A DNA stretch of 64,000 nucleotides from Orobanche coerulescens (taxonomy: Eukaryota; Streptophyta; Magnoliopsida; Lamiales; Orobanchaceae): contig CM065801.1 of NCBI GenBank assembly GCA_033398695.1, forward strand, positions 53,826,358 through 53,890,357. The letters run 5' to 3'. The position numbers and the translations under genes were made by a program. The notes below the pieces were generated by a model. That model was not told the origin of the DNA. It saw nothing but the letters and a program-made list of their open reading frames with translations, and did no database searches. Every line of letters starts with the position of its first letter. The stretch's first letter is position 1. Below, one piece after another: positions 6,984 to 64,000 of this stretch.

Positions 6984-8213
6984 TGATGAGTCGATTCTTG
7001 ATCGACTCATTCTATTCTATTGAGTCGTGTTTTTGTTTGCTTTTTAGTGTTTTTGTTCTCTTTTATGCGTGGTATGTTGTGTTTTTAATTTATAGGTAGT
7101 CGAGCAAAAATTGTGGTGAAATATGCGCTTTCATAGCCAGTATTGGAGTTTATGACTATCAAGAGCAAAAACGGGGCCTAAAACGATAAAGATTGAAGCA
7201 ATATTGGTCGTATTTTCTAAATTATAGAATCATCACTCTGAATTGGGAAGTTTTCTCCATTGATATAGATTCCTCGTGAAATTAGCTTCAGAACGGTATA
7301 TCATACACTAAATTCCGAGGTGTATTGATACAAAAACGAAGGATCAAGCCGAAGAAGACCAAAAACCGGAATCAAAACTAGAAGAAACGACCCGGGACGC
7401 ATCAGGCAACTCGACCGTGTCACAGGACACGGCCAGGTCTCGTTCCAGTGAGATTTTCACATTACGGGAGAGTACAACACAGCCGTGTCACAGGACACGG
7501 CCGAGTCACTATCCAGTCGAATTTCACTTTCTGAAGGAGTACAACACGGGCCGTGTCATATGACACGGCCGGGTCCGATGGACAGTGCACTTTTTGCCAT
7601 TTCCAGGACAGTATGACACAGGCCGTGTCATTTGACATGGGCCGTGTCACTTTTCGGTGCAAGTCCATTTCTTTGACATTTTTACACGATTTGGAGCACT
7701 TTTCTTGTTTTTTGGCTTTATAAAAAGGTGTTGGAGACCTTAGGAGATATATTCAGATCTTGTATGAGATATTGTTTGGAAAAACACATGATTTAGGGAG
7801 AGAAACACCAAAATAGAGAGGAAAGAGAGATTTTTCATAATCTTCCTTGTTTGTTCATGTTGAAATATACATTTGTGAGATATTATAATACCTTGTATCA
7901 TTTGTTGTGAATTCTTGAAGAAAGATCATCACACCTTCATCGGGAATTCGATTTCGGCTTTTACAAGGGAAGTTTCTACCATGTTTTATTTTACAATTTC
8001 CATTATTATTGTTGGAATAATCATGTTTACATAATCTTTTCATATGGGTTTTTAGATTGAGCCACACACATGTTATCGATTATTAGTTTCAATTGATTTT
8101 CCTGGTAGAGTTTGGGATTGTTCCTCTTTGTTTGTTCATCGCATAAGAACTTTTGATTTAGATCATCAAAACTATTTCATAGTTGTTATTATTATTCAAA
8201 ATCGAGTGTTTTT

Positions 8214-8917
8214 CACTACACCATATATGACCTTTTGCAAGCCCAAAAAAGTGTATTGTTAGACCCCATATATATTACATTAGAATTTTATGTAACATTT
8301 TAGCCAAAACTCGGCGTTGCATTTGCGGCCGTTGCCTATGACCCACATAGCAACATTTTATGTACTTATTGCAACATTTACTAAGTATTACAATAGCGCC
8401 TTTATTGCAACAATTTAGGCTATTTCAGTAACACTTTTAAGGTGTTGCAATAGACTAATGCAACACTTGCTTGCAATATTTATTGAGTTAAAATGTTACA
8501 AAGTCAATTTATTGCAACATTCTTAATGCTTGTTGCAATGCTTTTTGGTTTTTTAGCAACATTTATCTGCAATATTTTTATCCCTATTATAATGTTTTAG
8601 ACTTTATTGGCAACACTTATTTGCAACACTTTTTATTAATCCAAATTGCAAGGTTCTATTTGAAATTTCAATATACCAAACCTGAAATCACATTTCAAAT
8701 TTCCCAAATAACAAATCCAGCAAAACATGTCAATAAAACCCAAACATAGTCAACTTTTATCACAATATCGTCTTACATCTAGTACTTAAGTCTAAAGTCG
8801 AAACATACATGTCAACTTACACCGCAATTTTACATTAAACATAGTCTTTCATGTCAAAATGCCAACCTACTACCAAAAGTACGCGTATAAAATATATAAG
8901 TAGTTAAGTAGTGATCA
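8214..8917. repeat. Left TIR and subterminal repeats of the CACTA element
   Basis: After the TIR, direct and inverted copies of a GCAACA(C/T)TT motif recur every 20-40 bases to about 8650. In En/Spm such repeats bind the TNPA-type protein. Bases 8650-8917 are AT-rich and probably the 3' untranslated region of the second gene. Confidence 0.7.
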
Positions 8918-42882: not shown

Positions 42883-43462
42883 TGTTTGAGGAGAAAAGTA
42901 AAGACAGCAATCAATTGTATTGATAACAATGAATAGAGGGGCCTTTATATCGGCACCCTTCCAGTCCCAGCGTCTGGAAGGGTGTTATTATACCAGCGCC
43001 TACGTGGCGCTGATGTGGCGTCTAGTAGGCGCTGATGTGGTATATTTTAATATAAAAAAATAGTAGGGGTGATGCAAAAACACCCCTACTATCTACACCA
43101 TGCTTTGTAGGGGTTGTCAGGATCTTTGTATATGTAGTAAGGTTTTGATAGTAGGGGTGTTTTTGTATCACCCCTACTATTTTTTTATATTAAAATATAC
43201 CACATCAGCGCCTACTAGACGCCACATCAGCGCCACGTAGGCGCTGGTATAATAGCACCCTTCCAGACGCTGGGACTGGAAGGGCTCCGGCCTTTATATA
43301 GGCATTACAAAGAGAGTCTTTCCATACATAGGATTCCTAGTTAAGGTAAGACATCTAACAGGATCCAACTACTTATGGAAGAGTCTAGAACCTACCATAA
43401 CTCTTATCCCCCTACAACTAGTATTAGGTAAGACACCAATACGGGAAGGATTTCCCGGAACA
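42883..43462 (-). repeat. 5' LTR of copia, split by a MITE
   Basis: It begins TGTTTGAGG and ends GGAACA. It matches the 229 bp LTR at 35757 on both sides of the 42951-43289 insertion. Confidence 0.9.
42951..43289. mobile_element. MITE with very long inverted repeats (Mutator-like)
   Basis: The left arm CGGCACCCTTCCAGTCCCAG pairs with the right arm (complement CGGAGCCCTTCCAGTCCCAG). Pairing continues almost without mismatch for about 145 bases per arm, leaving a loop of about 50 bases. Each arm also holds smaller hairpins (CCCTTCCAG...CTGGAAGGG; CAGCGCC...GGCGCTG). The 10 bp target duplication GCCTTTATAT (42941-42950, 43290-43299) suggests the Mutator superfamily. No ORF. Confidence 0.85.
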
Positions 43463-44186
43463 ATATTTGTGTAATAATATTATGGAATATTTATTTATTT
43501 GTGTTGTTATTATGAGTGAGTAATTTTCTTTTACTGGGGTTATGACGAAACCATGTATATATTATTATTAATATTTATATAATAATTCCAAATAAATATT
43601 TTTAACGATTATGATTTTCGCTTCAATAGGGGAATATTATTTCATCAATTATATCACGTATTTTTTATAGTTATAAATTCCCCATTGCTTTGTGATTATT
43701 GATATTAGTTAATTTCTTTGATTATTTGTTTTCCATTAAATTGGATACATATAATGCTTAGAAATTACATTTTTTAAGCGAAGGAAAATCTATATTTGAA
43801 TTATAATTTTGTACTTATTGTCAAATCTATAGGGAAATAGTGAGATTGATTTCAGAATCTATTCCCTGAATTTCTTGGAATTAAAATATAAAATAAATAA
43901 TAGATAGACATTGGTGGATTCTAAACCCTAGTAAATTATTTAAAATCAATTTATCTAAAATCTACTTAAAAATTACTGTTATTTAATGCAATTATTTTAA
44001 CCAATCAAAAATCAAATTATTTGGGACTAGGTTAGAATTTAATATAATTTGGTTCAAAACGATAGGAATAATTTGACTTCACTAGTATAGTCCTCCCTGT
44101 GAAATCGATCTTGCACCGCATATCTACATCGAACAAATCGTGCGCTTGTGAGTATTAGACTAAAGAATCAACAAACAACAAGTTTT

Positions 44187-44205
44187 TGGCGCCGTTGCCG
44201 GGGAG
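44187..44205 (+). other. Primer binding site of E (tRNA-Asp)
   Basis: TGGCGCCGTTGCCGGGGAG is complementary to the 3' end of plant tRNA-Asp, as in Athila-type elements. It marks the end of the 5' LTR. Confidence 0.85.
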
Positions 44206-45822: not shown

Positions 45823-47318
45823 ATGCAAGTTTGGCAACGAAATAATAAAGGTCGATTAACGAGAAGAAGATTGTCCTTAACTAAAATTGAAGTTCAACAA
45901 ACGAAACCGAGACCAAAAATGGACGAAATCGAAAATCGGAATAATGAAGTTGCAAAAGAGAAAACTTTAATAGAGTATTTTTCTCCAGTGAGTGCTAATT
46001 CTCCTTCTTGCATAGTGTTGCCTACAACTAATGCAACTCATTTCGAACTTAAACCATCAATAATTCAACTTCTTCCATCTTTTCACGGATTGGAAAGAGA
46101 AGATCCTTATATGCATGTCAAGGAATTTCTCGACATTTGTTCTACTTTCCGATTCCAAAATTTCTCTGATGAATCTGTCAAACTTAGATTATTTCCATTT
46201 TCTCTCAAAGATAAAACAAAATTCTGGCTAAATTCTCTTCAAGCAAGAACAATTACTAGTTGGGACCAACTAGTGAATAAATTTCTCCCAAAAAATTTTC
46301 CAATGTCCAAAACTGATAGTCTTAGAAGAGAAATATCAGAATTTTTCCAAAAAGAAAATGAAGAATTTTACGAGTGTTGGGAAAGATTTAATGATTTAAT
46401 CCTTAAGTGTTCCCATCATGGTTTTGAAATATGGCGTTTGGTAAAATATTTTTATGATGGTTTAACTCCAAACAATCGCCAATTAATCCAATCAATGCAT
46501 GGTGGAAAATTTCTTCACCTTATTGGAGACGAAGCTTGGAATGCACTAGAAAATATGTCAATTAATTCACAACAATGGAATTCACTCGACTCTAGAGCCA
46601 AATCGATGCACACGACCCCAAAAAAAGGTGGAATTTACGAGGTTAAACAAGATGTTGAAATAAAATCTACTATAGATGATTTAGTACGAAAAGTGGATGC
46701 GTTAGTCTTGAAGCAATCCATCCCCTCGTCAAACTCAAAACAGGAATTTTCATTTCATGTGCGGAATCATTTCATTCATCTCAATCTTGTCCCAATCGTC
46801 CACAAAATCAAGAAATTTTTAATGAAGAAGTCAATGTGTTACATTCATATGGAAAATCTCCGGACAGTCCATTTGCTCCAACTTATAATCCAAATTGGAG
46901 GAATCATCCAAATTTTTCCTGGAAGCAAAACATGCCTCCAATGAATCAAGGAGGACATCAAATGAATATGTCAAATCAACAAAATGTCCGTCCTAATCAA
47001 TATCCTCCAAATACTTATCAGTATCCTTCTATAGTGCCAAAGAAACCATCTTTAGAAGATACGTTGCAACAATTCATGCAATCTACTCAACAAATGTTTC
47101 AATCAACTCAGCAAGCTGTACAATCAAACTCACAGGCTATTTGTAAGCTTGAAACACAAATTGGTCAACTTGCAACAACTTTATTTGAAGAGAAAAGGAA
47201 AATTTCGAGTCGGTCCATCCCTAATCCTAAAGGACAATATGAAGTAAACTCTTCTAACGCAAGTTCATCCATAACTACCCTTAGAAGCGGAAAAGAAATA
47301 CAAAAGCGACTATGATCC
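45823..47318 (+). pseudogene. E gag
   Basis: From ATG 45823 the protein has a retrotransposon gag domain (LLPSFHGLEREDPYMHVKEF, then LFPFSLKDKTKFWLNSL and FFQKENEEFYECWERFNDL). A frameshift near 46755 falls inside the zinc-knuckle region; the other frame shows CAESFHSSQSC followed by a glutamine-rich tail (QQFMQSTQQMFQSTQQ, 47060-47130). The frame ends at a stop at 47313-47315, before protease. Confidence 0.8.
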
Positions 47319-49982
47319 TAAGAAAAATCAAATGAACCACAAGTTTCAAAATCAAAAGATTCTAAAGAAAAAGAAAAGCCTTACGTTCTAAAAGCTCCAT
47401 TTCCTGAAAGACTTATTCCAAAAGATAAAAGTGCGCAATACAAAGATATAATGGAAATATTTAAACAAGTTCGAATAAATATTCTATTCCTTGATGCTAT
47501 TAAACAAGTGCCTGCTTATTCTAAGTTCTTGAAAGATCTTTGCACTGTAAAAAGAAGAACAAATGTTCCAAGAAAGGCATTTTTAGCTGAACATGTTAGC
47601 TCAATAATCCAAAACAAAACTCCCGTTAAATATAAAGATCCTGGTAGTCCTACAATATCTTGTGTCATTGGAGATCACATCATTAAACAAGCCTTGCTTA
47701 ATTTAGGAGCCAGTGTCAATTTATTACCATATTCTGTTTATACACAACTTGGATTAGGGGAGCTAAAATCAACATCTGTGATACTTCAACTAGCTGATAG
47801 ATCTATAAAAATACCTCGAGGAATCATAGAGGATGTTCTGATTCAAGTAGATAAATTCTACTTTCCTGTTGATTTTATAGTCATAGACACTGAACCTGTT
47901 GAGAATACCAAAGATCAAATCCCTGTCATTTTAGGAAGGCCATTTTTAGCTACTTCAAATGCATTAATTAACTGTAGAAATGGCATCATAAAATTTTCTT
48001 TTGGAAATATGACTGTTGAACTAAATATGTTTAACATTTCTCAACAACATGATGATCATGATGATGTCTGTGAGGTAAATATGATAGAGAGTATGGGTCC
48101 TTATTTCTTTCCAAAAATAGATGATGATGATCTTTTTGAAAGCTGTCTTGCTCATTTTGGCTCAGATTTTGACATTGACAGTTCAATTAATGAAGTAAAT
48201 TCTTTACTAGAGTCTACACTATTATTGGATAATGATAAATGGAAAGCTAAAACCGAACCACTTGAGAGCCAAATGAATAATGAAGTACCTATTGAGGATT
48301 CAAAGATAGAGCTCAATCCATTACCTGAATCTCTAAAATATGTATTTTTAGGACCATCAGAAACCCTGCCTGTCATCATAGCATCTGATTTAGATGAAGA
48401 ACGAGAAGATAAGTTAATAAATGTTCTTAAAGAACATAAAGAAGCAATAGGCTGGACCATCTCCGATATTAAAGGTATTAGTCCTTCTATATGCATGCAT
48501 CGAATTCACCTTGAAGAAAATGCGAAAACTTCCCGAGAATTTCAAAGAAGACTAAATCCTAATTTGAAAGAAGTTGTAAGAGCTGAAATACTCAAACTCT
48601 TAGATGTAGGGATCATCTACCCTATTTCAGACAGCTCTTGGGTTAGTCCTGTTCATATAGTTCCAAAGAAATCTGGCATAACTGTAATCACGAATGAAGA
48701 AAATGAACTTGTTCCAACCAGAATTCAAACTGGATGGAGAGTCTGTATTGACTACAGAAAATTGAACTCTGTTACAAGAAAAGATCACTTTCCACTTCCT
48801 TTTATTGATCAAATGCTAGAAAGGTTAGCCGGTCATGCTTATTATTGTTTTCTTGATGGATATTCCGGCTATAACCAAATTCCAATTGCTCCTGAAGATC
48901 AAGAAAAAACCATTTTTACCTGTCCTTTCGGAACTTTTGCTTACCGACGAATGCCATTTGGATTGTGTAATGCACCTGCTACTTTTCAGCGGTGTATGAT
49001 GAGCATTTTCTCTGACATGGTTGAGCGGTTTTTGGAAATTTTTATGGATGATTTTTCTGTATTCGGGTCTAGCTTTGATGAATGTTTACACCACTTAACC
49101 CAAGTGTTGGTTAGGTGTAAGGAGAAGAATCTTATCCTAAACTGGGAAAAATGTCATTTTATGGTTAAAAAAGGAATTGTCTTAGGACATGTGATTTTTG
49201 AAAAAGGAATTGAGATGGACAAATCTAAAGTTGATTTAATATCCAGTCTTCCACCCCCACGAACGATTAAAGAAATTCGGTCATTCTTAGGCCATGCTGA
49301 TTTTTACCGTCGATTCATCAAAGATTTTAGCAAAATCTCAAGGCCATTATGTAATTTACTTTCAAAAGACACACCTTTTGTATTTGATGATCATTGTCTA
49401 AAAGCTTTTAAGACACTCAAATCTATGTTGAGCTCTGCACCTATCATCAAATCTCCAAACTGGAATCTTCCTTTTGAAATAATGTGTGATGCATCCGACT
49501 ATGCCGTCGGTGTAGTATTAGGTCAAAGAGAAAATAAATTGCCAACTGTAATATATTATGCAAGTAGAACTCTAAATGATGCCCAATTAAATTATTCTAC
49601 AACTGAAAAAGAATTGCTTGCAGTCGTTTTTGCCTTAGACAAATTTCGATTTTACTTGATTGGTTCGAAAGTCATAATTTACTCCGATCATGCTGCATTA
49701 AAATATCTTCTTTCTAAGAAAGATGCTAAACCTCGCTTGATCCGTTGGATTCTATTGTTACAAGAGTTTGACTTAGAAATTGGAGATAAAAAAGGTGCTG
49801 AAAATGTTGTTGCTGATCATTTGTCTAGGCTAATCGTGAATTTTACTGATAAAGAACCTCCCATTAATGAAACTTTCCCTGATGAACAACTCATGTCTGT
49901 TTCTCAAATACCTTGGTATGCCGACATTGTCAATTATCTTGTCACTGGTAACATGCCATCTCATTGGAATAACCAAGAATAA
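47319..49982 (+). pseudogene. E pol: protease, reverse transcriptase, RNase H
   Basis: The open part begins by 47451 and runs 843 residues. Protease: LLNLGASVNLLP, where a catalytic aspartate (DLGAS) is expected; the codon at 47700-47702 is AAT (Asn), so protease is probably dead. RT: WRVCIDYRKLNSVT, FLDGYSGYNQI, MPFGLCNAPATFQRC and the active site FMDDFSVFG, all well kept. RNase H: IMCDASDYAVGVVLGQ, TEKELLAVVFALDKF, IYSDHAALKYL. It ends at TAA 49980 just before the integrase, where the family normally reads on. Confidence 0.9.
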
Positions 49983-51205
49983 ATAAAATTTTTAAACGAA
50001 GTAAAAAAATTCTTTTGAGATGATCCATATTTGTTCAAATATTGTCCTGATCAAATCATTAGGAGATGTGTGCCAGAACATGAACAACAAAATGTCATTT
50101 CCTTTTGTCATGATCATGCATGTAGAGGTCATTTTAGCTCAAAGAAAACAACTGCTAAAATTCTGCAATGTGGTTTTTATTAGCCAACACTTTTCAAAGA
50201 TACACATTCATATTGCAGCACATGTGATAGATGTCAAAGATTAGGTCGAATTTCTAAAATAAATATGATGCCTTTAAGCCCAATTTTAATTATTGAAATA
50301 TTGGATGTTTGGGGCATAGATTTTATGGGACTTTTCCAATTTCTTTTGGCAATCTTTACATCCTTGTGGCCGTCGATTATGTTTCAAAATGGGTAGAAGC
50401 AATTGCTTGCAAAACAAATGACCACAAAGTCGTGGTAAAATTTTTGAAAGAAAATATTTTTTCCAGATTTGGAACACCACGAGCAATTATAAGTGATGGG
50501 GGAAAACATTTTTGTAACCAATTTTTGAATCATCTATTTAAAAAATATGGTGTTACACATAAAGTTGCTACTCCTTATCACCCTCAAACAAGTGGACAAG
50601 TTGAAATTTCAAACAGAGAAATCAAACATATTCTTGAAAAAACTGTTAATCCTACAAGGAAAGATTGGTCTTTGCGATTGAATGATGCATTGTGGGCTTA
50701 CCGTACTGCTTTTAAAACTCCCATCGGAATGTCTCCATTTAGGCTTGTCTTTGGAAAACCATGTCATTTGTCTGTTGAATTGGAACATAGAGCATACTGG
50801 GCCATAAAACGATTAAATTTTTCATTAGACATGGCTGGAATTCATAGGAAACTTCAACTAAATGAATTGGAAGAAATCAGAAATGATGCTTACGATTGTG
50901 CAAGAAAATATAAGGACAAAATGAAATTTTTTCATGATAAACACATTTTGAGAAAAACTTTTTCTCCTGGTCAAAAAGTCCTTCTTTTTAACTCTCGTTT
51001 GTTATTATTTCCAGGCAAGTTGCGTTCACGATGGTCTGGTCCATTTATTATTCATACGGTCTATCCTCACGGAGCTGTAGAAATTGAAAATCCAAAAAAT
51101 GGTAATATTTTTAAAGTGAATGGTCAACGATTAAAACCATATTTGGAATTAAAATCTTTTGAGGTAGAAGAGATTCTTCTTAAAGACCCCGATATTGTGG
51201 ATTAA
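49983..51205 (+). pseudogene. E pol: integrase
   Basis: The zinc-binding part (49983-50290) is damaged by the TAA at 49980, a TGA near 50018 where tryptophan is usual, and a frameshift near 50090; its CSTCDRCQRLG motif is still readable. From 50309 the core is open: [12 protein letters not shown], then [12 protein letters not shown] and [13 protein letters not shown] with the second and third acidic residues. The first (GIDFMG) lies just upstream in another frame. The C-terminal part ([29 protein letters not shown]) is intact. No chromodomain, as expected for Athila. Confidence 0.85.
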
Positions 51206-51323: not shown

Positions 51324-51869
51324 ATGGAACAAACTTTGAAAACAATTGAAAAAAGATTTCCCTTTCTTAGTAAAAAAGTCATTTTGAAACTTTACCAAGC
51401 CAGAGTTGAAAGGATGAGGTTGCTTATGAATAACGGCATACCTTTTGATATTCGATTCATTATTGAAGCCAAAGTGAGAATAGCGGGTGAATTCACGGAA
51501 ACACCAACTAGATTTTTACCAGGGCTTGGAAAAAGTTCATATGCCAAGAAACGACGAGCAAAGAAAATCGTCGTTTGCTACAAATGTGCTAGGTGGAACT
51601 GTGATTCAAGATGTCGATCTTTAGGAATTCCTTCCACAAACAGAGAAGATAAAATTCAGTTCATCAAGGATGGTCTGAATAAGGAGAATTTAGATGATAT
51701 CGAAATTTCTCTTGACACGCATCCTAGTGGACTCGTACATTATGGGATTCGATGTTTGTGGAATAAATTCAAACCAGAATATGAACAACATCTTGGGAAT
51801 CTGACGTTAAAAGACCCTGTTTGCCAATTTGTAAGAAAATTGGATGGGAAGCTTCTCCCCGACTCATAG
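51324..51869 (+). CDS. Unknown 181-residue protein with basic patch and four-cysteine cluster
   Basis: The ORF is intact from ATG 51324 to TAG 51869, 118 bp after pol and on the same strand. The N-terminal third is basic and helix-prone. Residues 75-81 are KKRRAKK, followed by four cysteines at 85, 88, 93 and 97 (CX2CX4CX3C), a possible zinc site. The rest has no motif I recognise; no signal peptide or membrane segment is seen. A basic patch next to a Cys cluster is the layout of small nucleic-acid-binding silencing suppressors of some filamentous plant RNA viruses, but the Cys spacing differs and homology is not shown. It has no resemblance to Athila ORF1. Function unknown; nucleic-acid binding is a guess. 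Confidence 0.7.
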   Translation: MEQTLKTIEKRFPFLSKKVILKLYQARVERMRLLMNNGIPFDIRFIIEAKVRIAGEFTETPTRFLPGLGKSSYAKKRRAKKIVVCYKCARWNCDSRCRSLGIPSTNREDKIQFIKDGLNKENLDDIEISLDTHPSGLVHYGIRCLWNKFKPEYEQHLGNLTLKDPVCQFVRKLDGKLLPDS

Positions 51870-52181
51870 AAGGCGTTTAAGCCGTTTCTGAATGTAAAAT
51901 CAGAGGAAGATGTGAGCCACAATCACAACTACTGTACATACACGTGAGTATCTTTACTTTTTGTCGTTTTTTTTAGATTTTCTGAATAAAAAAAGTGATA
52001 CGCAATCAATGCATTCATTATTCTATTGAGTAGTTGAAGCGCAATTAACGCGGTCACAGATTTTATAAATCTTTTTACTTTATTTTGCATCTATAAATAA
52101 ACGTTGCAGTTGTTTCTTTTCTGCATCCCTCAAACTTGTATTCTTTTCATTATCTCTCTAAGTAATTTTCTTTTCAAAAAA
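51870..52181 (+). promoter_or_regulatory. Probable promoter and leader of the LOG gene
   Basis: TATAAATA at 52092-52099 is followed by a CT-rich leader and the ATG at 52182 in context AAAAAAATGG. This places transcription start near 52125-52130. It suggests the LOG gene has its own transcript and does not depend on the LTR. Confidence 0.5.
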
Positions 52182-52838
52182 ATGGAATCATCATCTTCCG
52201 CAAAAAGATTTAACTCCATCTGCATTTTTGGTGGAGCTAGTCATGGGAAAGAGGCTTGCTTTACTGAAGCAGCCCACAACTTGGGTCGTACCTTAGGAAA
52301 AAAATGCATTCATGTAGTTTACGGAGGCGGAAGTCTAGGATTAATGGGACGTGTTGCTGCTTCTGCCTATATGGAAGGAGTAAAAGTGTTGGGAATCATT
52401 CCAAAACCTCTGGCTGAAAGTAAAATTACCGAAGCAACCATTGGAGATGAGTTCAGAGCTGTGAATATGCAAGACCGCATAACTCACATGATAAATAATG
52501 CTGATGCCTTTATCACCCTTCCTGGTGGTCTTGGCACTCTTGAAGAACTTTTTCATGTGGTTACCAGAGCCCAGCTAAATGTTCATACGAAACCAATAGG
52601 TCTGCTAAATGTCAATGGTTTCTTCGATGGTTTACTATCTTTCATCAACTACTCTTCTGAAAAAGGTTTGATTTCTGAGCGTGCTAAACGAATCATAGTT
52701 GTTGCAACAACACCAGAAGAGCTGATCAAAAAACTTATTGCATTTGTTCCTGAACCAGACCCAGCTCTAGCTAATATTGTTTGGATGGAAGATTTCACTG
52801 TGCGGAAACGCAAAATTAATACATTCCTTTCCCTCTGA
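52182..52838 (+). CDS. LOG-like: LOG-type cytokinin riboside 5'-monophosphate phosphoribohydrolase
   Basis: The 218-residue protein has the family hallmarks: SICIFGGASHGKE at the start, GGGSLGLMG at 48-56, the region MQDRITHM with the expected arginine (99), and PGGLGTLEE at 114-122. It ends in the usual TPEELIKKL region plus a short tail. Plant LOG enzymes release active cytokinin bases from their riboside monophosphates, in cytosol and nucleus. The length fits plant LOGs (about 210-240). The ATG at 52182 is chosen because the frame upstream has no ATG and a TATA box with CT-rich leader precedes it. Plant LOG genes normally have several introns; this copy has none, so it likely came from a processed transcript. 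It lies between pol and the 3' LTR of E, same strand. Differences such as TRAQLN for the usual TWAQLG suggest divergence. Catalytic activity is not proven. Confidence 0.9.
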   Translation: MESSSSAKRFNSICIFGGASHGKEACFTEAAHNLGRTLGKKCIHVVYGGGSLGLMGRVAASAYMEGVKVLGIIPKPLAESKITEATIGDEFRAVNMQDRITHMINNADAFITLPGGLGTLEELFHVVTRAQLNVHTKPIGLLNVNGFFDGLLSFINYSSEKGLISERAKRIIVVATTPEELIKKLIAFVPEPDPALANIVWMEDFTVRKRKINTFLSL

Positions 52839-54265: not shown

Positions 54266-56473
54266 TGTAATATCCGCATTTTTCTTTCCCTTGAATCTTC
54301 ATTTTTCGGTGTATTTCGCGGTTGTAGTGACCCTCGTGTATCTTTCAGCGTATCTTTTCCGTCATCTATTGATCTGATTCTCGTTATTGTTACACGGAAC
54401 CACTATTCGGAGTTGCCGTGGATCCATTCTATGTTTCGATGCGTCTTGAGATGTTCCGTTCAACGTTTCGTTCATATTCCGGTGTTTTGGACCGTTTATA
54501 TCTCGTACCTAGCGCACGTTATATTTATTGCATAGCGCACGCTAGGGGTCACTTAGTAGGGCACGCTACGACTGTTTCGTAGCGCGCTGAAGGGCAAGCC
54601 ACAGGAGTGGCGATCTTGATTCGATCCTGCGGGTGGTGGATTAGCGTACGCTACGTAGCCTAGCGCACGCTAATGTTGGAAGTTAGCGCACGCTGATACG
54701 CCCGGTAGCGTGCGCTAGTGTGGATGTCGATCGGGCGGTTGCCATGGACTCTCACGATGCCGAGTAGCGCACGCTATTGGTCGATAAGCGCGCGCTCTGG
54801 ATACACTTTAGCGCACGCTACGTTTGGTCGATAGCGCGCGCTAACCGGATCAGTGTGTGCGACGGTTTAGCTTCGGACTCGGTGATGTCGTGTAGCGCAC
54901 GCTATTGGTCGATAGCGCGCGCTACCGAGAGGTTATTAGCGCACCCTACGTTTGGAGTAGCGCACGCTAATGGCTAGAAATCTGGCTACTGGACTGTAGT
55001 CTGTTTCGTTAGCGCACGCTAACCTGGAGGATTAGCGCGCGCTAACACTCCCTAGCTATATAAACCAGGGAGTTGACCCAGATGAACGTATTACGTTCAT
55101 TTCTTCTCCTCCCCGCGGCTTAGAGCTCCTTTGGAGATTTTGGGCGATTCTTGGTGATTTCTTCTTCCAATCATCTCATCCAACATCCTCCTCGAATTCT
55201 TGGTGTATTATAACAACATCAACACGAATCTTTCATCCTAATCCAAGATAAAATCTCTTAGAACCCTACTTTTCGATAAATTGGGGGTTTTGGATTTTCG
55301 TCCGATTCATTCCATTTTGTTGGTGGATTCATGATGATTATGATTAATCTTGTTGGTATTCTTAGTTTCCCTACGGATTCATGGTATATTTCGTAGTTTT
55401 TGCGGAATCGAGAGGGATTGGTTGTGGTCCACCCTAGTTGTTGTTTATATACGGATATACATGGATCGTAGGCGGGTTTTCGGGTGTATTCCATTTCCGT
55501 ATTCGTCTTAGAGTTGGTTGTAATTATGTTCTTCGAATCGTTAGGTTCGGTTCCGTTGATTCCTAGCGTTCGTCGGTGATTATCCTTTCCGTTCGTTGCG
55601 TCGTCAACTATTCAAGGCAAGTATTCTTTTGGAAACCTTTATGCTTAACGTGAAATGGTAATGTATATTGTGTGTGCTTTGCTCACCCTGGGAGGGTCCG
55701 ACGGGGCCTCGGGGGAATCTATGACTTCACTCTGGATTCATGAGTTTGTTTCGCTAGCCAGCTCGGGAGGGTCCTTAGTGGCCTCGGGTGGGATTCGTGG
55801 CTTCGTTCCGGTCCTAGGCGATGCCTGTGCGTGATTTGTTTTATGAAATGGCCATCTCGGGAGGGTCCTTAGAGGCCTCGGGTGGGATTCGTGGTTTCAT
55901 CCCGGTCCTAGGCAAATTGTTTGACTGTTTGTTTCCGGAAAAGACATATCTGCTTTTGGTTTTTGAAATGATATTGGTGCATGTACTATGAAATGTGTAA
56001 GCGATTGGTTTGCCTTGATTACTTGTACTAGCGTAATTGCTAACCCCTTTGGGGGACCCGTTTTGGGGAAATTCTTGTTATGGATTTCAGGTTATGATCA
56101 TCCGGACGAGCGAGCGCTGGGACAGTACGAGGATGTTGGCCAGGGTCGTTGACATGTGCACTCGGGTCTACTTATTTCTTTTGTTCACTTCGATATGGTT
56201 GCTTCCTATATTTATAAACTGATAGACTGTACTCGCGAGTACTTAGGCTTTTCAATTCAAACCCCGTGTTGTATTATTTTGAACTGCTACATTGTCGACT
56301 GTTTCTTATTTCCCCGGTTGCTCAGGGCGTATCTTTATATGTTATATTATTTAAATGTGTGTTCTCGCTAACCGAGATGGTTAGTCGAGGGGTGTTTTCT
56401 AGTTGTAACCTGGTGGGTCCCATGTAGGGGTCCACGGCGCTGTAATTTACTCCGAATATCTCGGGGTGTTACA
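54266..56473 (+). repeat. 5' LTR of D
   Basis: It contains an array of TAGCGCACGCTA and TAGCGCGCGCTA palindromes (54510-55045), TATATAAA at 55057-55064, and tandem copies of a unit GGGAGGGTCC...GAGGCCTCGGGTGGGATT...GGTCCTAGGC (55690-55915). The leader-intron donor seen in the other LTR is AAGATA here (mutated GT); the acceptor GGATTTCAG ends at 56090. Confidence 0.9.
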
Positions 56474-56477
56474 GAAA

Positions 56478-56490
56478 TGGTATCAGAGCT
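56478..56490 (+). other. Primer binding site of D
   Basis: TGGTATCAGAGCT, four bases after the LTR, is complementary to the 3' end of plant initiator tRNA-Met, as usual for chromoviruses. Confidence 0.95.
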
Positions 56491-56696
56491 CTATGTTTAT
56501 GGATACCTAGGCTTGTTGGTTATTTGGGTCTAGTCGTGTTTTGTTTTGCACATTGTCACACCGCTGCCAGCATCTCGGTACTTCCAGTGCTCGTAAGTTT
56601 TCTTATTCGGTCTTTTGTTTTCTTGCATAGTATTTCCGCTTTTCGAATCGTGGTTGCTTTTTCCTCCCTTACCCATCATCAATATACTTCTGTTAT

Positions 56697-58036
56697 CTCT
56701 TAACACCAGTATCGATGCCGGAGGAAACCGTGGTCGTGGTCGTGGACGCGGCCGAGGACGTGGGGCAGCCGGTGGGGCGGCCACGTCGCATTCTTCGGGA
56801 GCCGGCAGTACCGGTGACCGTCACAGTCATGCTTCTTCTTAGGAGCGCGCCGACGTTGGTATTGCGGCCGTCATGCAGCAAATGGTTAATCAAATGGCGG
56901 CTATAGCTCAGGTAGTCCAGAACCCCGATCAGGCTCATGCTAATCGGGGCGGAGCGGATCGCTGGCTACAGGATGTCATCAAGATGCATCCTCCTCAGTT
57001 TTCGGGAGCTTCGGACCCGATCGGCTGGGAAGGGTGGATCAAGGAGATATCTAAAGTCTTCACTGCTACCAACTGTCCCGAGGACCGTAAGGTCCCTATT
57101 GCTCAGTACTTTCTCACGGGGGACGCTACGGATTGGTGGGAGGCCGTTGGGCCCAAAGATCATGTTGCTTCGTGGGCCGAATTTCAGGAGTTGATGGAGA
57201 CTGAATATTGCCCGTGGCCAGTTAGACAGGCTCGAGTCCATGCTTTCTACGATGCTCAACCTCGGGATATTCCCGTATCCCAAGCTATTGCTGATTTCAA
57301 CAAAGAGCTGGGCTATGTGAAAACCCAAGTTGTCGCTGAGAGCGACAAAATTTTCCATTTTTCCAGGAGGATGAAACTGTCCATTCGGGACTATATGTCT
57401 GGACTCGTCTGTACTACCCTGAAGGATTATCAGAGTCGAGCCCTTGCCTATGACATGTCGGTGACAGCCAGTGCGGCGGTTCGGGAGAGTAAGAAGCAGA
57501 AATCCGCCGGAAATTTTTCGGGTCACAGAGGTGGAGGTCAGCAGAAGTCTCAGTCTGTGAATATTCCTGGAGGTAATTCGGCTCGTTTCTCTGGGGGCTA
57601 TCGGGGTACTGCCGGTGCCTCCGTTCGGGATGCCAAATGCTTTAACTGCGGCGAGCCGGGCCATCGGAACCGGGAGTGTCCTCGTCCGCCCCTAACTTGT
57701 CACACTTGTGGTCAGTCGGGCCACAAGGCCTTCTTTTGTGAGCGGGTAAGAAAGCTTCTTGGTGCTCAGGCTTCTTTTCCAGCACCTTTGGAGCCAAGTG
57801 TGAACCAGGGTTCATTTGCTCCGCCGCCACCTCCGAGTGCCGGTCGAGGTAGGGGTCGGGGTCAGCCCGCTAGGGGAGGAGCTTCCAGTGTCGGCTCTGC
57901 CCAGCCGCGTATCTATGAGATGAGGAGGGACGATGATCCAGCAGCTACTGTGGCGACAGGTACCGTTCATATCCTTTCCCATCCTGTCAGTGTGCTTTTC
58001 GATTCGGGTGCTACGCATTCATTTATTTCTCTATAG
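56697..58036 (+). pseudogene. D gag and start of protease
   Basis: An RG-repeat segment (GGNRGRGRGRGRGRG, 56719-56763) is in the same frame as gag but is separated by a TAG at 56840-56842. From 56873 the gag runs MQQMVNQMAAIAQVV, then the capsid-like DRWLQDVIKMHPPQFSG and TDWWEAVG region, two CCHC knuckles (CFNCGEPGHRNREC and CHTCGQSGHKAFFC), and the protease site VLFDSGATHSFIS, ending at TAG 58034-58036. Confidence 0.9.
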
Positions 58037-58906
58037 TGTGTATGCCGTTTGAGTCTCTACTGTTTGTCACCTTGCGAGCCTTTCATCGTTAAACTTCCTA
58101 GCGGTGATAGAATTGTCGGTGATCGAGAGGTCCAGGACTGTTCTGTGTTTATTTGTGAGAGGGCTTGGCTCTCTAATCTCATTGTCGTGAGCATCGAGGG
58201 TGAGGATTTGATTCTCGGGGATGATTGGCTCGAGCGGCATGGCGCAATCATGAACTACCGCACGAGGATCATCACCATGTTAGCCGAGGATGGCACCGAG
58301 CACTCCTTCGCGGGGCGAAGGAGGGGAAATCAGAAGTTTGTTATTAATGCCTTGAAGGCGATGAGACTCCTACGAAAGGGGTGTACTGGTTATTGGTGCT
58401 ACGCCTTGAAGGTGGAGAATGGTGGAGTCGCGCTTTCGTCGATTCCAGTCGTTAATGAGTTTCCTGATGTATTTCCTGACGAGTTGCCGGGATTGCCACC
58501 GAATCGTGAGGTCGAATTTGTTATAGAGTTAGAGCCGGGCGCGGCTCCGATTTCTAAGGCGCCGTATCGTATGGCACCTTCAGAGATGACAGAATTAAAG
58601 AAGCAGTTGAGCGAGCTTCTTAAGTCGGGGTATATTCGACCGAGCGCCTCGCCTTGGGGCGCACCGGTCCTGTTTGTGCGGAAGAAGGATGGTTCACTAC
58701 GTTTGTGTATCGACTATCGCGAATTAAACAAGGTGACCATCAAGAACAAGTATCCCTTGCCGAGAATTGATGACTTGTTCGATCAGTTGCAGGGAGTTGC
58801 GGTATTCTCGAAGATTGATTTGAAATCGAGGTACTATCAGCTTCGGGTGAGAGAGTCCGACGTCAAAATGCTTTTCGGACGAGATACGGACATTATGAGT
58901 TTGTAG
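58037..58906 (+). pseudogene. D pol: rest of protease and first half of RT
   Basis: It is in the same frame as gag beyond the TAG. It holds the second half of protease ([17 protein letters not shown]), the linker [16 protein letters not shown], and RT start ([48 protein letters not shown], where the family has SGYHQL). A one-base loss near 58865 shifts the frame; [11 protein letters not shown] is readable in the next frame. Confidence 0.9.
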
Positions 58907-58908
58907 TT

Positions 58909-61341
58909 ATGCCTTTCGGGTTAACTAATGCGCTGGCGGTGTTCATGCAGTTGATGAACAAAATCTTTATCGAGTATTTGGATAAGTGTTTCGTCGTTTT
59001 CATTGACGATATTCTTATTTATTCGAGGAACGAGGAAGAGCATGCCCATCATTTGTGGATAGTGTTAGACATTTTGAGGACCGAGCAACTCTATGCGAAG
59101 TTCTCGAAATGTGAGTTCTGGCTTAGGGAAGTGATGTTTTTGGGTCACGTGATTTCAGCCGAGGGAGTTCGTGTGGATCCGCATAAAATTGAGGCAGTGT
59201 TGGATTGGGCATCGCCCACAAATGTGAAGGAGGTCCGTAGTTTCTTGGGTTTGGATGGCTACTACCGTAGGTTCGTCGAGGGTTTCTCAAAACTAGCTCG
59301 GCCACTTACACAGTTGCTCCAGAAATCCGAGAAGTTCGTCTGGAATGACGAGAGACAGTCGAGTTTTGAGGAACTGAAGAAGCGTTTGACTTCAGCCCCG
59401 GTTTTGGCATTGCCATGTGGCAACGAGGGGTTCGCCGTTTATAGCGATGCTTCGGGTCAGGGTCTTGGGTTCGTATTGATGCAGCATGGCAAGACCATTG
59501 CCTTTGCGTCGAGACAGTTGAGGCCGTATGAGCTGAACTACCCTACTCATGATTTGGAGTTAGCGGCAGTTGTTTTTGCGCTCAAGATCTGGCGTCACTA
59601 TCTTTTCGGCTCTACATGTCAGATTTTTACCGATCATAAGAGCCTGAAATACATATTTACTCAGCGGGAGTTGAATATGAGGCAGAGGAGGTGGTTAGAG
59701 CTGATTAAGGATTATGACCTCGAAATCCTTTATCATCCGGGCAAGGCGAACGTCGTGGCCGACGCCTTGAGTCGGAAACCGATTGCGTTGCGAACGATTG
59801 AGATCCTTACGTCTCAGTCTGAGCTTCGGCGGGCTTTGATCGAGTTAGATGTTGAGGTTTTGTTGCCTGGAGCTGTCGGGCAACTTTGTGCTTTAGAGAT
59901 TTCGTCGTCCCTGATCGATGAAATTAAGCTGAAGCAATTAGAGGATCCGATGATTACTCAAATCCGAGAGAACGTTCTTAAGGGAAAGTCTCCTGGGTTT
60001 GTGATTCACGAAGATGGTGTTTTGAGATTTCGGAGTCGGCTTTGTGTGCCGAACGACTCAGAGTTGAGGCAGAGTATTTTGCGTAAGGCACATGCTACAC
60101 CTTATTCCGTTCATCCTGGTTCGAGTAAGATGTACAAGGACCTGAGGAGGAATTTCTGGTGGAATGATATGAAGGAGGAGGTCGCACAGTTTGTAGCGAG
60201 ATGTTTGACTTGTCAGCAGATCAAAATCGAGCATCAGCGACCGGCTGGGTTATTACAGTCACTTCCCGTTCCAGAATGGAAATGGGAAGATATATCGATG
60301 GATTTTGTTACGAGCTTGCCGAGATCGAGGTCGGGCATGAATATGGTATGGGTGATTGTTGATCGTCTGACCAAGTCGGCACATTTTCTGGGCATCAAGG
60401 ACACTTGGGGTCCAGAAAAGTTGGCTCGTGTGTTTATCACGCAGATTGTGAGGCTTCACGGTACTCCGAAGTCTATTGTTTCGGATCGTGATGGCCGTTT
60501 CGTATTGCACTTTTGGCAGGCGGTGCATGAGGCGTTGGGTACCCGTTTGCATTTGAGTACCTCTTTTCATCCTCAGTCAGATGGACAGTCGGAACGCACT
60601 ATCCAGACATTCAAGGACATGTTGCGTGCTTGTGCTCTCGACTGGAGTAGTGACTGGGAGGAGCACTTGCCATTAATCGAATTCACGTACAACAATAGTT
60701 GGCATGCGACGATTCGGATGGCACCGTATGAGGCGCTCTACGGGCGACGTTGTCGATCGCCGATTTGTTGGAATGAGGCGTCCGATTTGGTCGGGACCGA
60801 ACCGGATGTCGTTTTAGAGACGAGACGGAAGATAGAATTAATTCGGGAATGGATGTTGACTACCCAGAGTCGACAGAAGTCATATGCCGATGTCCGTCGT
60901 CGACCTTTAGAATTCGAGGTGGGAGACCACGTTTTGCTGAAGGTGTCGCCGACGAGAGGAGTTTTCCGTTTCGGGAAGAAGAGGAAGTTGAGTCCTAGAT
61001 TTATTGGACCCTTCGAGATTCTGGAGCGAGTCGGTGGGTTAGCATACCGTTTGGCGTTACCCCCGGCCTTGAGTCATGTTCAGAGCGTTTTTCATGTTTC
61101 CCAGCTGAGGAAATATGTCCCGGACCCTAGTCACGTCATCGATTATGGTGAGATTGATGTCGCCGAGGATATTACTTTCGAGGAGCGTCCTTTGAAGATT
61201 TTGGAGCATCGTGAAAAACGAGTGAGGCATAAGACCATCCCTTTGGTCAAAGTGCAGTGGTCGAGACACGGTGTCGAGGAGGCAACTTGGGAGACCAAGG
61301 ATAGCATGCGTGCTAGCTACCCTGAGTTGTTTGTTTCTTAA
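58909..61341 (+). pseudogene. D pol: RT active site, RNase H, integrase, chromodomain
   Basis: An 810-residue open frame: [17 protein letters not shown] active site [11 protein letters not shown], RNase H ([32 protein letters not shown]), integrase zinc finger ([16 protein letters not shown]) and core ([37 protein letters not shown]), the GPF region, and a C-terminal chromodomain ([18 protein letters not shown]). This domain set defines a chromovirus, which can direct insertion to heterochromatin. All catalytic residues I can check are present; only upstream lesions disable it. Confidence 0.95.
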
Positions 61342-61376
61342 GTTTCAGGATGAAACTTATTTTAAGAGGGGTAGAA

Positions 61377-63584
61377 TGTAATATCCGCATTTTTCTTTCC
61401 CTTGTATCTTCCTTTTTCGGTGTATTTCGCGGTTGTAGTGACCCTCGTGTATCTTTCAGTGTATCTTTTCTGTCATCTATTGATCTGATTCTCGTTATTG
61501 TTGTACGGAACCGCTATTCGGAGTTGCCGTGGATCCATTCTATGTTTCAATGCGTCTTGAGATGTTCCGTTCAACGTTTCGTTCATATTCCGGTGTTTTG
61601 GACCGTTTATATCTCGTACCTAGCGCACGCTATATTTACTGCATAGCGCACGCTAGGGGTCACTTAGTAGCGCACGCTACGACTGTTTCGTAGCGCGCGC
61701 TAGAGGGCAAGCCCTGGGAGTCGCAGTGCTGATTCCAGTCCTCTGGACTGGTGGATTAGCGTACGCTACGTAGCCTAGCGCACGCTAATGTTGGGAGTTA
61801 GCGCACGCTGAGACGCCCGGTAGCGTGCGCTAGTGTGGATGTCGATCTTGGCGGTTTGCCACGGACTCTCACGATGCCCAGTAGCGCCGCGCTATTGGTC
61901 GATAAGCGCGCGCTACCGATACACTTTAGCGCACGCCTACGTTTGCTCGATAGCGCGCGCTAACCGGATCAGTGTGTCTTGTGATTTAGCTTCGGACTCG
62001 GTGATGTCCGTAGCGCACGCTATTGGTCGATAAGCGCGCGCTAGAGGTTATTAGCGCACGCTACGTTTGGAGTAGCGCACGCTAACGGCCGTAATCGCTC
62101 CGGATCAGAACTGTTTCGTTAGCGCACGCTAACCTGGAGGATTAGCGCGCGCTAACACTCCCTAGCTATATAAACCAGAGAGTTGACCCAGATGAACGTA
62201 TTACGTTCATTTCTTCTCCTCCCCGCGGCTTAGAGCTCCTTTGGCGATTTTGGGCGATTCTTGGTGATTTCTTCTTCCAATCATCTCATCCAACATCCTC
62301 CTCGAATTCTTGGTGTATTATAACAACATCAACACGAATCTTTCATCCTAATCCAAGGTAAAATCTCTTAGAACCCTACTTTTCGATAAATTGGGGTTTT
62401 TGGGATTTTCGTCCGATTCGTTCCGTTTTGTTGGTGGATTCATGATGATTATGATTAATCTTGTTGGTATTCTTAGTTTCCCTACAGATTCATGGTATAT
62501 TTCGTAGTTTTTGCGGAATCGAGAGGGATTGGTTGTGGTCCACCCTCGTTGTTGTTTATATACGGATATACATGGATCGTAGGCGGGTTTTCGGGTGTAT
62601 TCCATTTCCGTATTCGTCTTAGAGTTGGTTGTAATTATGTTCTTCGAATCGTTAGGTTCGGTTCCGTTGATTCCAAGCGTTCGTCGGTGATTATCCTTTC
62701 CGTTCGTTGCGTCGTTAACTATTCAAGGCAAGTATTCTTTTGGAAACCTTTATGCTTAACGTGAAATGGTAATGTATATTGTGTGTGCTTTGCTCACCCT
62801 GGGAGGGTCCGACGGGGCCTCGGGGGAATCTATGACTTCACTCTGGATTCATGAGTTTGTTTCGCTAGCCAGCTCGGGAGGGTCTTTAGAGGCCTCGGGT
62901 GGGATTCGTGGCTTCGTCCCGGTCCTAGGCGATGCCTGTGCGTGATTTGTTTTATGAAATGGCCAGCTCGGGAGGGCCGTTAGAGGCCTCGGGTGGGATT
63001 CTTGGTTTCATCCCGGTCCTAGGCAAATTGTTTGACTGTTTGTTTTCGGAAAAGACATGTCCGGTTTTGGTTTTTGAAATGATATTGGTGCATGTACTAT
63101 GAAATGTGTAAGCGATTGGTTTGCCTTGATTACTTGTACTAGCGTAATTGCTAACCCCTATGGGGGACCCGTTTTGGGGAAATTCTTGTTATGGATTTCA
63201 GGTTATGATCATCCGGACGAGCGAGCGCTGGGACAGTATGAGGATGTTGGCCAGGGTCGTTGACATGTGCACTCGGGTCTACTTATTTCTTTTGTTCACT
63301 TCGATATGGTTGCTTCCTATATTTATAAACTGATAGACTGTACTCGCGAGTACTTAGGCCTTTCAATTCAAACCCCGTGTTGTATTATTTTGAACTGCTA
63401 CATTGTCGACTGTTGCTTATTTCGCCGGTTGCTCCGGGCGTATCTTTATATGTTATATTATTTAAATGTGTGTTCTCGCTAACCGAGATGGTTAGTCGAG
63501 GGGTGTTTTCTAGTTGTAGCCTGGTGGGTCCCATGTAGGGGTCCACGGCGCTGTAATTTACTCCGAATATCTCGGGGTGTTACA
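61377..63584 (+). repeat. 3' LTR of D
   Basis: Same length as the 5' LTR and nearly identical outside the palindrome array (61620-62155), where the two copies differ much more. TATATAAA at 62167-62174; donor AAG|GTAAAA (GT at 62358) and acceptor GGATTTCAG ending at 63201 predict an 844 nt intron within the LTR. Confidence 0.95.
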
Positions 63585-63879
63585 CATATGGTAATGACAC
63601 ATTATGCTTTGATATGAGTGAACTCTTCTCGAATATCCCGTATATACACTTGAGTGAAGAGTGATATCCACTGTGAGGGTATTGAATCTTTTGGCATTCG
63701 ATTCTCAATGAAGTTGTTAGAATTTGGTGCGGCATCCTATTTTTCTCTGATCTCACTTGGGTCATGATCACTTGTTCTCTCTTGATATTGGTTTTGTCAT
63801 GATTTTTTCAGCATATGAGTATTATAACTCGGGTATAAGATTTGCCCGAGGACGTGCAAAAGATAAGTGTGGGGGAATT
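63585..63879 (+). other. 3' noncoding end and purine tract of E
   Basis: This continues the E tail after the second CATAT copy. It ends in AAGTGTGGGGGAA (63865-63877), the polypurine tract that primes plus-strand synthesis, directly before the LTR. Confidence 0.8.
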
Positions 63880-64000
63880 TATTTAGTATATTTTGAGTAA
63901 TATTTTTATTAGTATTTTATGTATATAATTGTGTGTTTTGTGTGATAATTTATTCGTTTTACCATATATTTATATTATTTCATTTTGTTAGAATTTTCTA
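63880..64000 (+). repeat. Start of the 3' LTR of E
   Basis: It matches 35251-35371 at every base except the second (TA here, TG there). The rest is outside the window. Confidence 0.9.

What the first reader, a model, noticed from the sequence alone, without database searches (positions are those of the whole stretch)
52182..52838. A cytokinin-activating LOG gene carried inside an Athila retrotransposon
Seen: an intact, intronless 218-codon ORF with the LOG signatures GGGSLGLMG and PGGLGTLEE lies between integrase and the 3' LTR of element E, on the coding strand. Known: LOG enzymes make active cytokinin, and plant LOG genes normally have introns. Inference: a host LOG mRNA was captured and now travels with the element, in the place where Athila normally carries ORF1. 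A mobile gene that raises active cytokinin could favour cell division around or in germline cells where the element is expressed. Alternative: a retrocopy that landed here by chance in this one copy; an A10 run near 53127 leaves that open.
Basis: partly seen in the sequence, partly recalled or inferred. Interest (0 to 1): 0.9.

Follow-up and report, generated by a model that had tools for sequence, protein, structure and literature searches.

The report
Jumping gene carrying a cytokinin enzyme
A retrotransposon in a likely broomrape genome carries, in 19 of 20 sampled copies, all or part of an intronless gene of the cytokinin-activating LONELY GUY family, a gene stretch seen at about 5,000 sites, which would likely let the element raise active cytokinin in cells where it is expressed.

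Summary
The ORF at 52182-52838 is real: a 218-codon LOG-family protein with conserved motifs and a predicted fold matching Arabidopsis LOG. It is no stray retrocopy: of 20 element copies chosen by integrase alone, 19 carry LOG (two only fragments) behind a carlavirus-NABP-like ORF. A 32-nt LOG word with up to 2 mismatches occurs 5,131 times (control 0). LOG omega is 0.25 between subfamilies (simulated neutral 0.85) but 0.66 between recent copies. A TATA box 90 nt upstream is intact in 28 of 28 aligned copies and recurs in a second, non-autonomous family whose LOG is about 49% identical; there LOG shows no selection. Element-type LOGs of lamiids and rosids form one clade outside Arabidopsis and host LOGs, so one old capture is likely; 89 of 108 relatives end in LxLxL (EAR-like), degenerate in this copy. 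LOG domains in Ty3/gypsy elements of Citrus and Populus are already published: new variant of a known kind. New here: scale, NABP partner, predicted internal promoter, tail. Cytokinin activity, expression and benefit are untested. The 3' LTR lies beyond a nested element, not near 53.2 kb.

The parts
43463..44180 (+). 5' LTR remnant (5' end truncated) of the Athila-like element
   Evidence: 98.5% identical over 720 columns to L049 696-1415, which maps to window 64496-65215, beyond the window
44187..44203 (+). primer binding site TGGCGCCGTTGCCGGGG; complementarity to the tRNA-Asp 3' end is recalled, not tested
   Evidence: read from sequence, 6 nt after the LTR end
45823..47315 (+). gag region (two overlapping ORFs in different frames)
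   Evidence: Retrotrans_gag E 5e-18 on ORF 45823-46944; the second ORF was not scanned
47451..49982 (+). protease-like region, reverse transcriptase, RNase H
   Evidence: RVT_1 E 2e-30, RT_RNaseH E 2e-36; Asp_protease_2 at E 9e-4 is below Pfam's cut-off
50309..51205 (+). integrase core; no chromodomain hit
   Evidence: rve E 9e-15
51324..51869 (+). accessory ORF, 181 aa, zinc-finger-like protein resembling carlavirus nucleic-acid-binding protein (NABP)
   Evidence: Viral_NABP 24.8 bits (cut-off 23) and Carla_C4 24.6 bits (cut-off 20.9); Carla_C4 in 36 of 39 aligned rows; C88, C93, C97 invariant in those 39
52092..52099 (+). TATAAATA, putative core promoter of LOG, 90 nt before the ATG
   Evidence: intact in 28 of 28 aligned copies; also in 9 of 9 printed copies of the second family
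52128..52135 (+). CCTCAAAC, possible initiator region 36 nt after the start of the TATA box; CCTCAAA recurs in 7 of 9 second-family copies (33 nt after the TATA start in L009)
52182..52838 (+). LOG-family ORF, 218 aa
53234..53246 (+). internal copy of the polypurine-tract-like 13-mer AAGTGTGGGGGAA; not the 3' LTR border
   Evidence: same 13-mer at 63865 just before the 3' LTR; the pair recurs in L020
54266..63584 (+). nested second Ty3/gypsy element inserted downstream of LOG (TSD CATAT); not part of the LOG system
   Evidence: LTR pair reported as 54266-56482 / 61377-63593 at 95.5%, a match that runs a few bases past the LTR end; TSD read; RT, RNase H, integrase zinc-binding and gag domains
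63874..64000 (+). start of the 3' LTR of the LOG-carrying element (continues to about 65215)
   Evidence: alignment to the 5' LTR of another copy, L050 2554-3885

Best explanation
Window 52182-52838 is a LONELY GUY (LOG)-family ORF that belongs to a high-copy Athila-like LTR retrotransposon family, and it is predicted to be transcribed from its own TATA promoter and likely to make an active cytokinin-releasing phosphoribohydrolase that would favour the element. Shown: position next to a carlavirus-NABP-like ORF in 19 of 20 integrase-selected copies; about 5,100 sites matching a LOG word; purifying selection between subfamilies; conserved active-site motifs and predicted LOG fold; TATA box present in two diverged element families. 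Inferred: one old capture of a plant LOG mRNA by a lineage now found in lamiids and rosids, kept since; the LOG messenger starts about 30-36 nt after the TATA box, apart from the gag-pol RNA; the enzyme converts cytokinin riboside monophosphates to active bases in the expressing cell, pushing it or its neighbours towards division, where new copies are more likely to be made or inherited. A basic and LxLxL tail in most listed relatives is predicted to add nuclear localisation or TOPLESS binding, but it is degenerate in this copy.
For: LOG and NABP at the same spacing in 19 of 20 copies selected by integrase only, although L033 and L048 keep only LOG fragments; 5,131 matches to a 32-nt LOG word with up to 2 mismatches, control 0; far-pair omega 0.246 against simulated neutral 0.846, NABP likewise 0.251 against 0.745; TATAAATA 28 of 28, recurring 77 nt before the ATG in L009 and in 9 of 9 printed second-family copies, Markov chance at that place 0.0023; G116, T119, E121, E122 in 39 of 39 and R99 in 36 of 39 chosen full-length rows; model pLDDT 85.6 with best Foldseek match 2a33, TM 0.96 by target, rmsd 1.1; one clade of element-type LOGs, 99/97 support for 27 rows, against AtLOG3, AtLOG8 and a host LOG at 100/97; NABP and LOG on listed contigs of identical length, 4 of 18 LOG contigs of 2 kb or more, 0 of 5,000 jittered controls reach 4.
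Against: Near-pair omega is 0.655 for LOG against 0.829 simulated, so most recent change looks close to neutral decay. Only 7 of 20 integrase-selected copies keep the full 218-codon ORF, the same number as for NABP. All 52 far pairs involve L022 or L026, which were picked by Pfam score. In the second family LOG omega is 0.673, within the range of the controls there (spacer 0.667, NABP remnant 0.770, downstream 0.976, antisense RNase H 0.437), so no selection is seen. In L022 and L026 the 26-nt block holding the TATA box is 0.81 identical to the window, no better than the rest of the spacer. This copy lacks a proper LxLxL tail. No expression data or enzyme assay. With Xanthoceras included the clade has only 88/77 support, and the canonical set in the tree is three rows.
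Confidence: 0.6

Rival explanations
1. LOG is a passenger: captured once, catalytically able or not, and kept only because the element amplified quickly.
For: Near-pair omega is close to neutral; no selection signal in the second family; only 7 of 20 copies intact.
Against: Far-pair omega 0.246, under all 300 neutral simulations, lowest 0.382; active-site residues kept in relatives only 46-65% identical outside Orobanche; LOG-containing clade spans rosids and asterids.
Confidence: 0.17
2. The conserved job is not cytokinin release but a LOG-derived protein acting in the nucleus through its basic and LxLxL (EAR-like) tail, for example on TOPLESS co-repressors that help keep elements silent.
For: 89 of 108 proteins newly listed by the P0238 search end in LxLxL, 87 of the 89 with a K/R cluster before it, against about 3% for shuffled tails of a 49-protein subset; 0 of 3 host LOG tails read in this genome have it; the tail is predicted disordered.
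Against: Active-site residues are as conserved as the tail; the window's family, with thousands of LOG sites, has a degenerate tail (KRKINTFLSL); no binding data.
Confidence: 0.15
3. A single host LOG retrocopy landed in this one element copy by chance.
For: Intronless ORF with an A10 run downstream.
Against: 19 of 20 copies carry it at the same place; thousands of sites; the sequence falls with element-type LOGs of other plants, not with host LOG.
Confidence: 0.01
4. The host plant, a likely root parasite whose haustorium may depend on cytokinin, keeps element LOG copies for its own use.
For: A host-exuded cytokinin signal is involved in haustorium initiation in Phelipanche ramosa (PMC5853424, title and start of abstract seen in the listing); thousands of LOG sites here.
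Against: Element-type LOGs are also listed from plants that I recall as non-parasitic, such as Populus, Reevesia, Paulownia and Melia; canonical LOG exons remain in this genome.
Confidence: 0.05

Closest known systems
LOG (YgdH) domain in Ty3/gypsy elements of Citrus and Populus (PMC9289625, section 12 and passages read; it cites Steinbauerova et al. 2011, Genetica, whose abstract I recall as naming two Athila-like elements with LOGL4 similarity; that paper is not held)
   Same: LOG-type domain inside a plant Ty3/gypsy element; Populus proteins fall in the same clade as the window's
   Different: The parts read there give domain presence only; no NABP partner, internal promoter, tail, copy-level selection or broomrape amplification is described in them
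AlkB m6A-demethylase domain in Phalaenopsis Ty3/gypsy elements (PMC9289625, abstract passage and section 12)
   Same: An enzyme domain captured by a Ty3/gypsy element and kept in many copies
   Different: Different enzyme; there RNA binding and activity were shown in vitro, here not
Canonical plant LOG (AtLOG3 At2g37210, AtLOG8 At5g11950)
   Same: Fold, motifs, active-site residues; 47% identity in the structural alignment to 2a33
   Different: Canonical LOG matches in this genome come in pieces parted by what look like introns, and the three host tails read lack LxLxL
Pathogen LOG enzymes (Claviceps purpurea 5ajt; Pseudomonas type-I LOG 5zbj)
   Same: LOG fold in a system that might gain by host cell division (a suggestion, not tested)
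   Different: Cellular organisms, not a retroelement; lower scores than AtLOG3
Carlavirus nucleic-acid-binding protein
   Same: Pfam-level match of the adjacent ORF
   Different: Only about 30-60 residues match; structure model poor; role unknown

Membership tests
LOG / Lysine_decarbox | Domain over curated cut-off | tested here: met
   126.6 bits against cut-off 27, full profile 1-131
LOG / Lysine_decarbox | GGGxxGLMG and PGGxGTxxE motifs with active-site Arg and Glu (roles recalled) | tested here: met
   GGGSLGLMG, PGGLGTLEE, R99, E121/E122 in the window; E121 and E122 in 39 of 39, R99 in 36 of 39 aligned rows
LOG / Lysine_decarbox | LOG fold | tested here: met
   predicted model pLDDT 85.6; Foldseek 2a33 TM by target 0.96
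LOG / Lysine_decarbox | Phosphoribohydrolase activity on cytokinin ribotides | not testable with these tools
   needs an enzyme assay
Athila lineage of Ty3/gypsy | Order gag, RT-RNase H, integrase, then forward 3' ORFs, no chromodomain | tested here: met
   Pfam order and no chromodomain hit in the integrase ORF; protease only below cut-off
Athila lineage of Ty3/gypsy | RT/INT phylogeny with Athila references | not tested
   no reference set used
Athila lineage of Ty3/gypsy | PBS complementary to tRNA-Asp (recalled) | tested here: inconclusive
   TGGCGCCGTTGCCGGGG is present; the tRNA match is from memory
Athila lineage of Ty3/gypsy | Athila ORF-1 domain PF03078 (in 16% of Athila elements, PMC6317226 passage) | tested here: not met
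   no hit in the five ORFs scanned; at 16% it is not defining
Carlavirus NABP family | Viral_NABP or Carla_C4 over cut-off | tested here: met
   24.8 against 23 and 24.6 against 20.9 bits; at E up to 0.001 Carla_C4 in 36 and Viral_NABP in 34 of 39 rows
EAR-motif protein | LxLxL or DLNxxP | tested here: not met
   window tail KRKINTFLSL lacks it; 89 of 108 proteins newly listed by the P0238 search have LxLxL in the last 8 residues
Captured gene carried by a whole element family | Present at the same place in copies chosen without regard to it | tested here: met
   19 of 20, two of them as LOG fragments

The most novel reading that the evidence does not exclude
A retroelement lineage shared by rosids and asterids has for perhaps 100 million years carried a two-gene host-manipulation module: a plant-RNA-virus-type nucleic-acid-binding protein and a LOG cytokinin activator with its own promoter and, in most hosts, an EAR-like tail. 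The element would be a hormone-making parasite of plant cells, convergent with gall-forming pathogens, and in this likely broomrape it has multiplied to thousands of LOG genes.
Probability: 0.3. Interest if true: 0.87.

Novelty: new variant of a known kind. Interest (0 to 1): 0.64.

Why it matters
If right, a transposable element would carry a growth-hormone gene as a fixed, selected part, a way for selfish DNA to change the cell it lives in. It makes the open question of what extra ORFs of Athila-like elements do directly testable with a simple enzyme assay. It also warns annotators: LOG gene counts can be inflated by element copies; a Populus trichocarpa protein annotated as LOGL10 falls in the element-type clade.

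Tried and rejected
Single chance retrocopy: rejected. 3' LTR at 53.2 kb: rejected. Selection on LOG in the non-autonomous second family: tested, no signal. NABP structure as evidence of viral kinship: model too poor (pLDDT 61.5, pTM 0.29), so no fold search was run on it. Relatives of NABP in viral contigs: none confirmed. Athila-pol fragment inside Xanthoceras LOG proteins: looked plausible by eye, but tblastn of the whole proteins to the window reported only LOG. A restrictive regular expression for full-length tails kept 109 of 228 rows and was replaced by a count of all 108 newly listed proteins. First omega script failed because gag was absent from the loci. Bacterial promoter scan is not meaningful for a plant. 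The nested element was first called a chromovirus by eye; Pfam shows no chromodomain, so it is called Ty3/gypsy only.

Ascertainment told: L009-L028 were chosen by Pfam score; L029-L048 are 20 of the 132 integrase matches; L055-L058 are 4 of the 40 scored copies. Rows with 20% or more gaps were dropped before omega (28 rows left for LOG, 29 for NABP, 7 for INT, 5 for PR-RT, window included). The 39-row alignments A1 and A2 were picked by me from 120 and 228 listed proteins, for A2 favouring full-length ones. The tree holds 33 rows picked the same way. The contig-length test used typed lengths from the listed tables, only contigs of 2 kb or more; shorter coincidences (905, 950, 1006, 1018, 1386) were left out because most cannot hold both ORFs.

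Full report
Observation. The AlphaFold2 model (pLDDT 85.6, tail of low confidence) matches 2a33 with TM 0.96 by target and rmsd 1.1. Between integrase and LOG lies a second conserved ORF, 51324-51869, with Pfam Viral_NABP and Carla_C4 over their cut-offs.

Element. 5' LTR remnant 43463-44180; PBS 44187-44203; gag, RT-RNase H, integrase; NABP; LOG; further internal sequence split by a nested Ty3/gypsy element 54266-63584 with TSD CATAT; 3' LTR about 63874-65215, ending outside the window. The two LTRs are 98.5% identical over 720 columns, so the insertion is likely recent.

Host. The genome has 3.65 Gb in 1,279 contigs. The closest proteins come from Orobanche hederae, O. minor and O. gracilis, so it is likely a broomrape; no call names the species.

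Fixed part of the element. The Pfam search scored 150 of 9,760 candidates, all listed ones over the cut-off, and the NABP search returned 150 of 11,778 candidates. Of ten copies chosen by Pfam score in the window's group (L019-L028), all ten hold NABP (L025 in part) followed by LOG, and seven also show integrase within the stretch. In 20 copies chosen only by integrase (of 132 matches), 19 have both NABP and LOG at the same spacing; L040 has neither, and L033 and L048 keep only parts of LOG. Full-length LOG (218 codons) is open in 7 of 20 and full-length NABP (181) in 7 of 20. A 32-nt LOG word with up to 2 mismatches occurs 5,131 times, control 0.

Second family. Ten other copies chosen by Pfam score (L009-L018) have a LOG about 46-51% identical to the window's. 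tblastn with the window's proteins found no gag, protease or neighbouring integrase there (L011 has a distant integrase match 4 kb away); 9 of 10 hold a NABP remnant and 7 of 10 an RNase H piece, antisense to LOG. L009 shows LTR-like direct repeats at about 177-2530 and 5940-8277. A LOG search from L009 lists, by my count, 127 matches of 69-100% identity before the identity drops to 50-53%. LOG omega here is 0.673 (12 copies, mostly Pfam-selected); controls: spacer 0.667, NABP remnant 0.770, downstream 0.976, antisense RNase H 0.437. Raw divergence of LOG (0.024) is somewhat under spacer (0.037) and downstream (0.030), which selection of copies by Pfam score could also cause. So no selection is visible after amplification. 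Of four copies fetched by the RNase H region alone, two have the full 212-codon ORF.

Selection in the window's family. Near pairs (dS up to 0.1): LOG 0.655 (324 pairs), NABP 0.565 (349), INT 0.551 (21); simulated neutral 0.829, 0.737, 0.789. Far pairs (dS over 0.2): LOG 0.246 (52), NABP 0.251 (54); neutral 0.846 and 0.745, lowest of 300 single simulated pairs 0.382 and 0.302. All far pairs involve L022 or L026, which were picked by Pfam score; that bias seems too small to explain a threefold deficit but is not excluded. The pattern is that of element genes selected while the element is active and decaying after insertion, alike for LOG and NABP.

Own promoter. TATAAATA stands 90 nt before the LOG ATG and is intact in 28 of 28 aligned copies, 18 of 18 integrase-selected ones. 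Eleven of 305 eight-base windows of the spacer are as conserved, and in the divergent L022 and L026 the block with the TATA box (0.81) is no better kept than the rest, so conservation within the family is modest evidence. The stronger point is that the second family has TATAAATA 77 nt before the ATG in L009 and in 9 of 9 printed copies, with CCTCAAA after it in 7 of 9, as in the first family. A Markov model gives 0.0023 for TATAAATA at that place in one spacer. That this is a working promoter is inferred.

Origin and spread. In a 33-row tree element-type LOGs form one group (27 rows, 99/97; with a Xanthoceras row 88/77), apart from AtLOG3, AtLOG8 and a partial host LOG of this genome (100/97). 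Paulownia, Rehmannia and Orobanche group together (8 rows, one unnamed, 100/98), but the second family of this genome does not fall among them. Rows from Diplodiscus, Reevesia, Pterospermum, Populus, Melia and Xanthoceras, rosids by recall except Xanthoceras, are in the wider group. One capture before the rosid-asterid split with mainly vertical descent is the simplest reading; faster evolution could push the group artificially deep, and only three canonical plant rows were used. Outside Orobanche, that the rows come from elements is inferred from the clade, from cluster sizes (327 members in a Pterospermum cluster) and from NABP and LOG on contigs of equal length: 4 of 18 LOG contigs of 2 kb or more, 0 of 5,000 jittered controls reaching 4. 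In O. minor NABP and LOG proteins bear neighbouring locus tags (020768/020769 and 009435/009434), and one O. hederae gene model joins both (P0173).

Tail. 89 of 108 proteins newly listed by the search with P0238 end in LxLxL within the last 8 residues, 87 of these with a K/R cluster before it; the last and third-last leucines are kept in 39 of 39 rows that I chose, window included. Shuffled tails reach 2.9% in a 49-protein subset. The three host LOG tails that could be read do not have it. LxLxL is one of the two consensus forms of the EAR repression motif (PMC6283911 and PMC9956375, starts of abstracts seen in the listing). The window copy reads KRKINTFLSL and does not fit; most Orobanche rows listed look alike.

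Known before. LOG (YgdH) domains in Ty3/gypsy elements of Citrus and, without a filter, Populus are reported in PMC9289625 (section 12 and passages read), which cites Steinbauerova et al. 2011; from memory that abstract names two Athila-like elements similar to LOGL4, but the paper is not held. Passages only were seen of PMC7264820, PMC11963269, PMC6317226 and PMC11728184; none mentions LOG where I looked. Searches for more listed no paper whose title or abstract start describes the NABP partner, an internal promoter, the tail or the broomrape amplification; this covers open PMC texts only.

Verdict. Observation confirmed; element-borne and, between subfamilies, selected LOG supported; cytokinin effect plausible and untested.

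Noticed in passing
window 51324-51869: Conserved ORF resembling carlavirus nucleic-acid-binding protein, directly upstream of LOG in the window's family and as a remnant in 9 of 10 second-family copies; 310 related proteins found. Possible plant-virus and retroelement exchange.
   Followed up: partly
window 53234 and 63865; L020 near 5894 and 7221: Polypurine-tract-like 13-mer AAGTGTGGGGGAA present twice per element, once inside and once at the 3' LTR; could be a central PPT or a relic border.
   Followed up: no
L016 2269-6446; genome C11:152.4-153.0 Mb: Second-family LOG-NABP-RNase H unit repeated at about 2.46 kb spacing, and a local cluster of second-family copies on C11.
   Followed up: no
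L009 3556-4005: Antisense RNase H fragment abutting a NABP remnant that lacks its N-terminus in the non-autonomous family, suggesting a rearrangement that made it.
   Followed up: no
P0305 (Populus trichocarpa): Protein annotated as LOGL10 carries the element-type tail and falls in the element-type LOG clade: likely an element gene counted as a host LOG.
   Followed up: partly
window 54266-63584: Second Ty3/gypsy element with 95.5% identical LTRs nested in the LOG element.
   Followed up: partly
window 42937-43284: Short repeats with ATAGTAGGGGTG-type arms near the truncated 5' border of the element, possibly a small inverted-repeat transposon.
   Followed up: no
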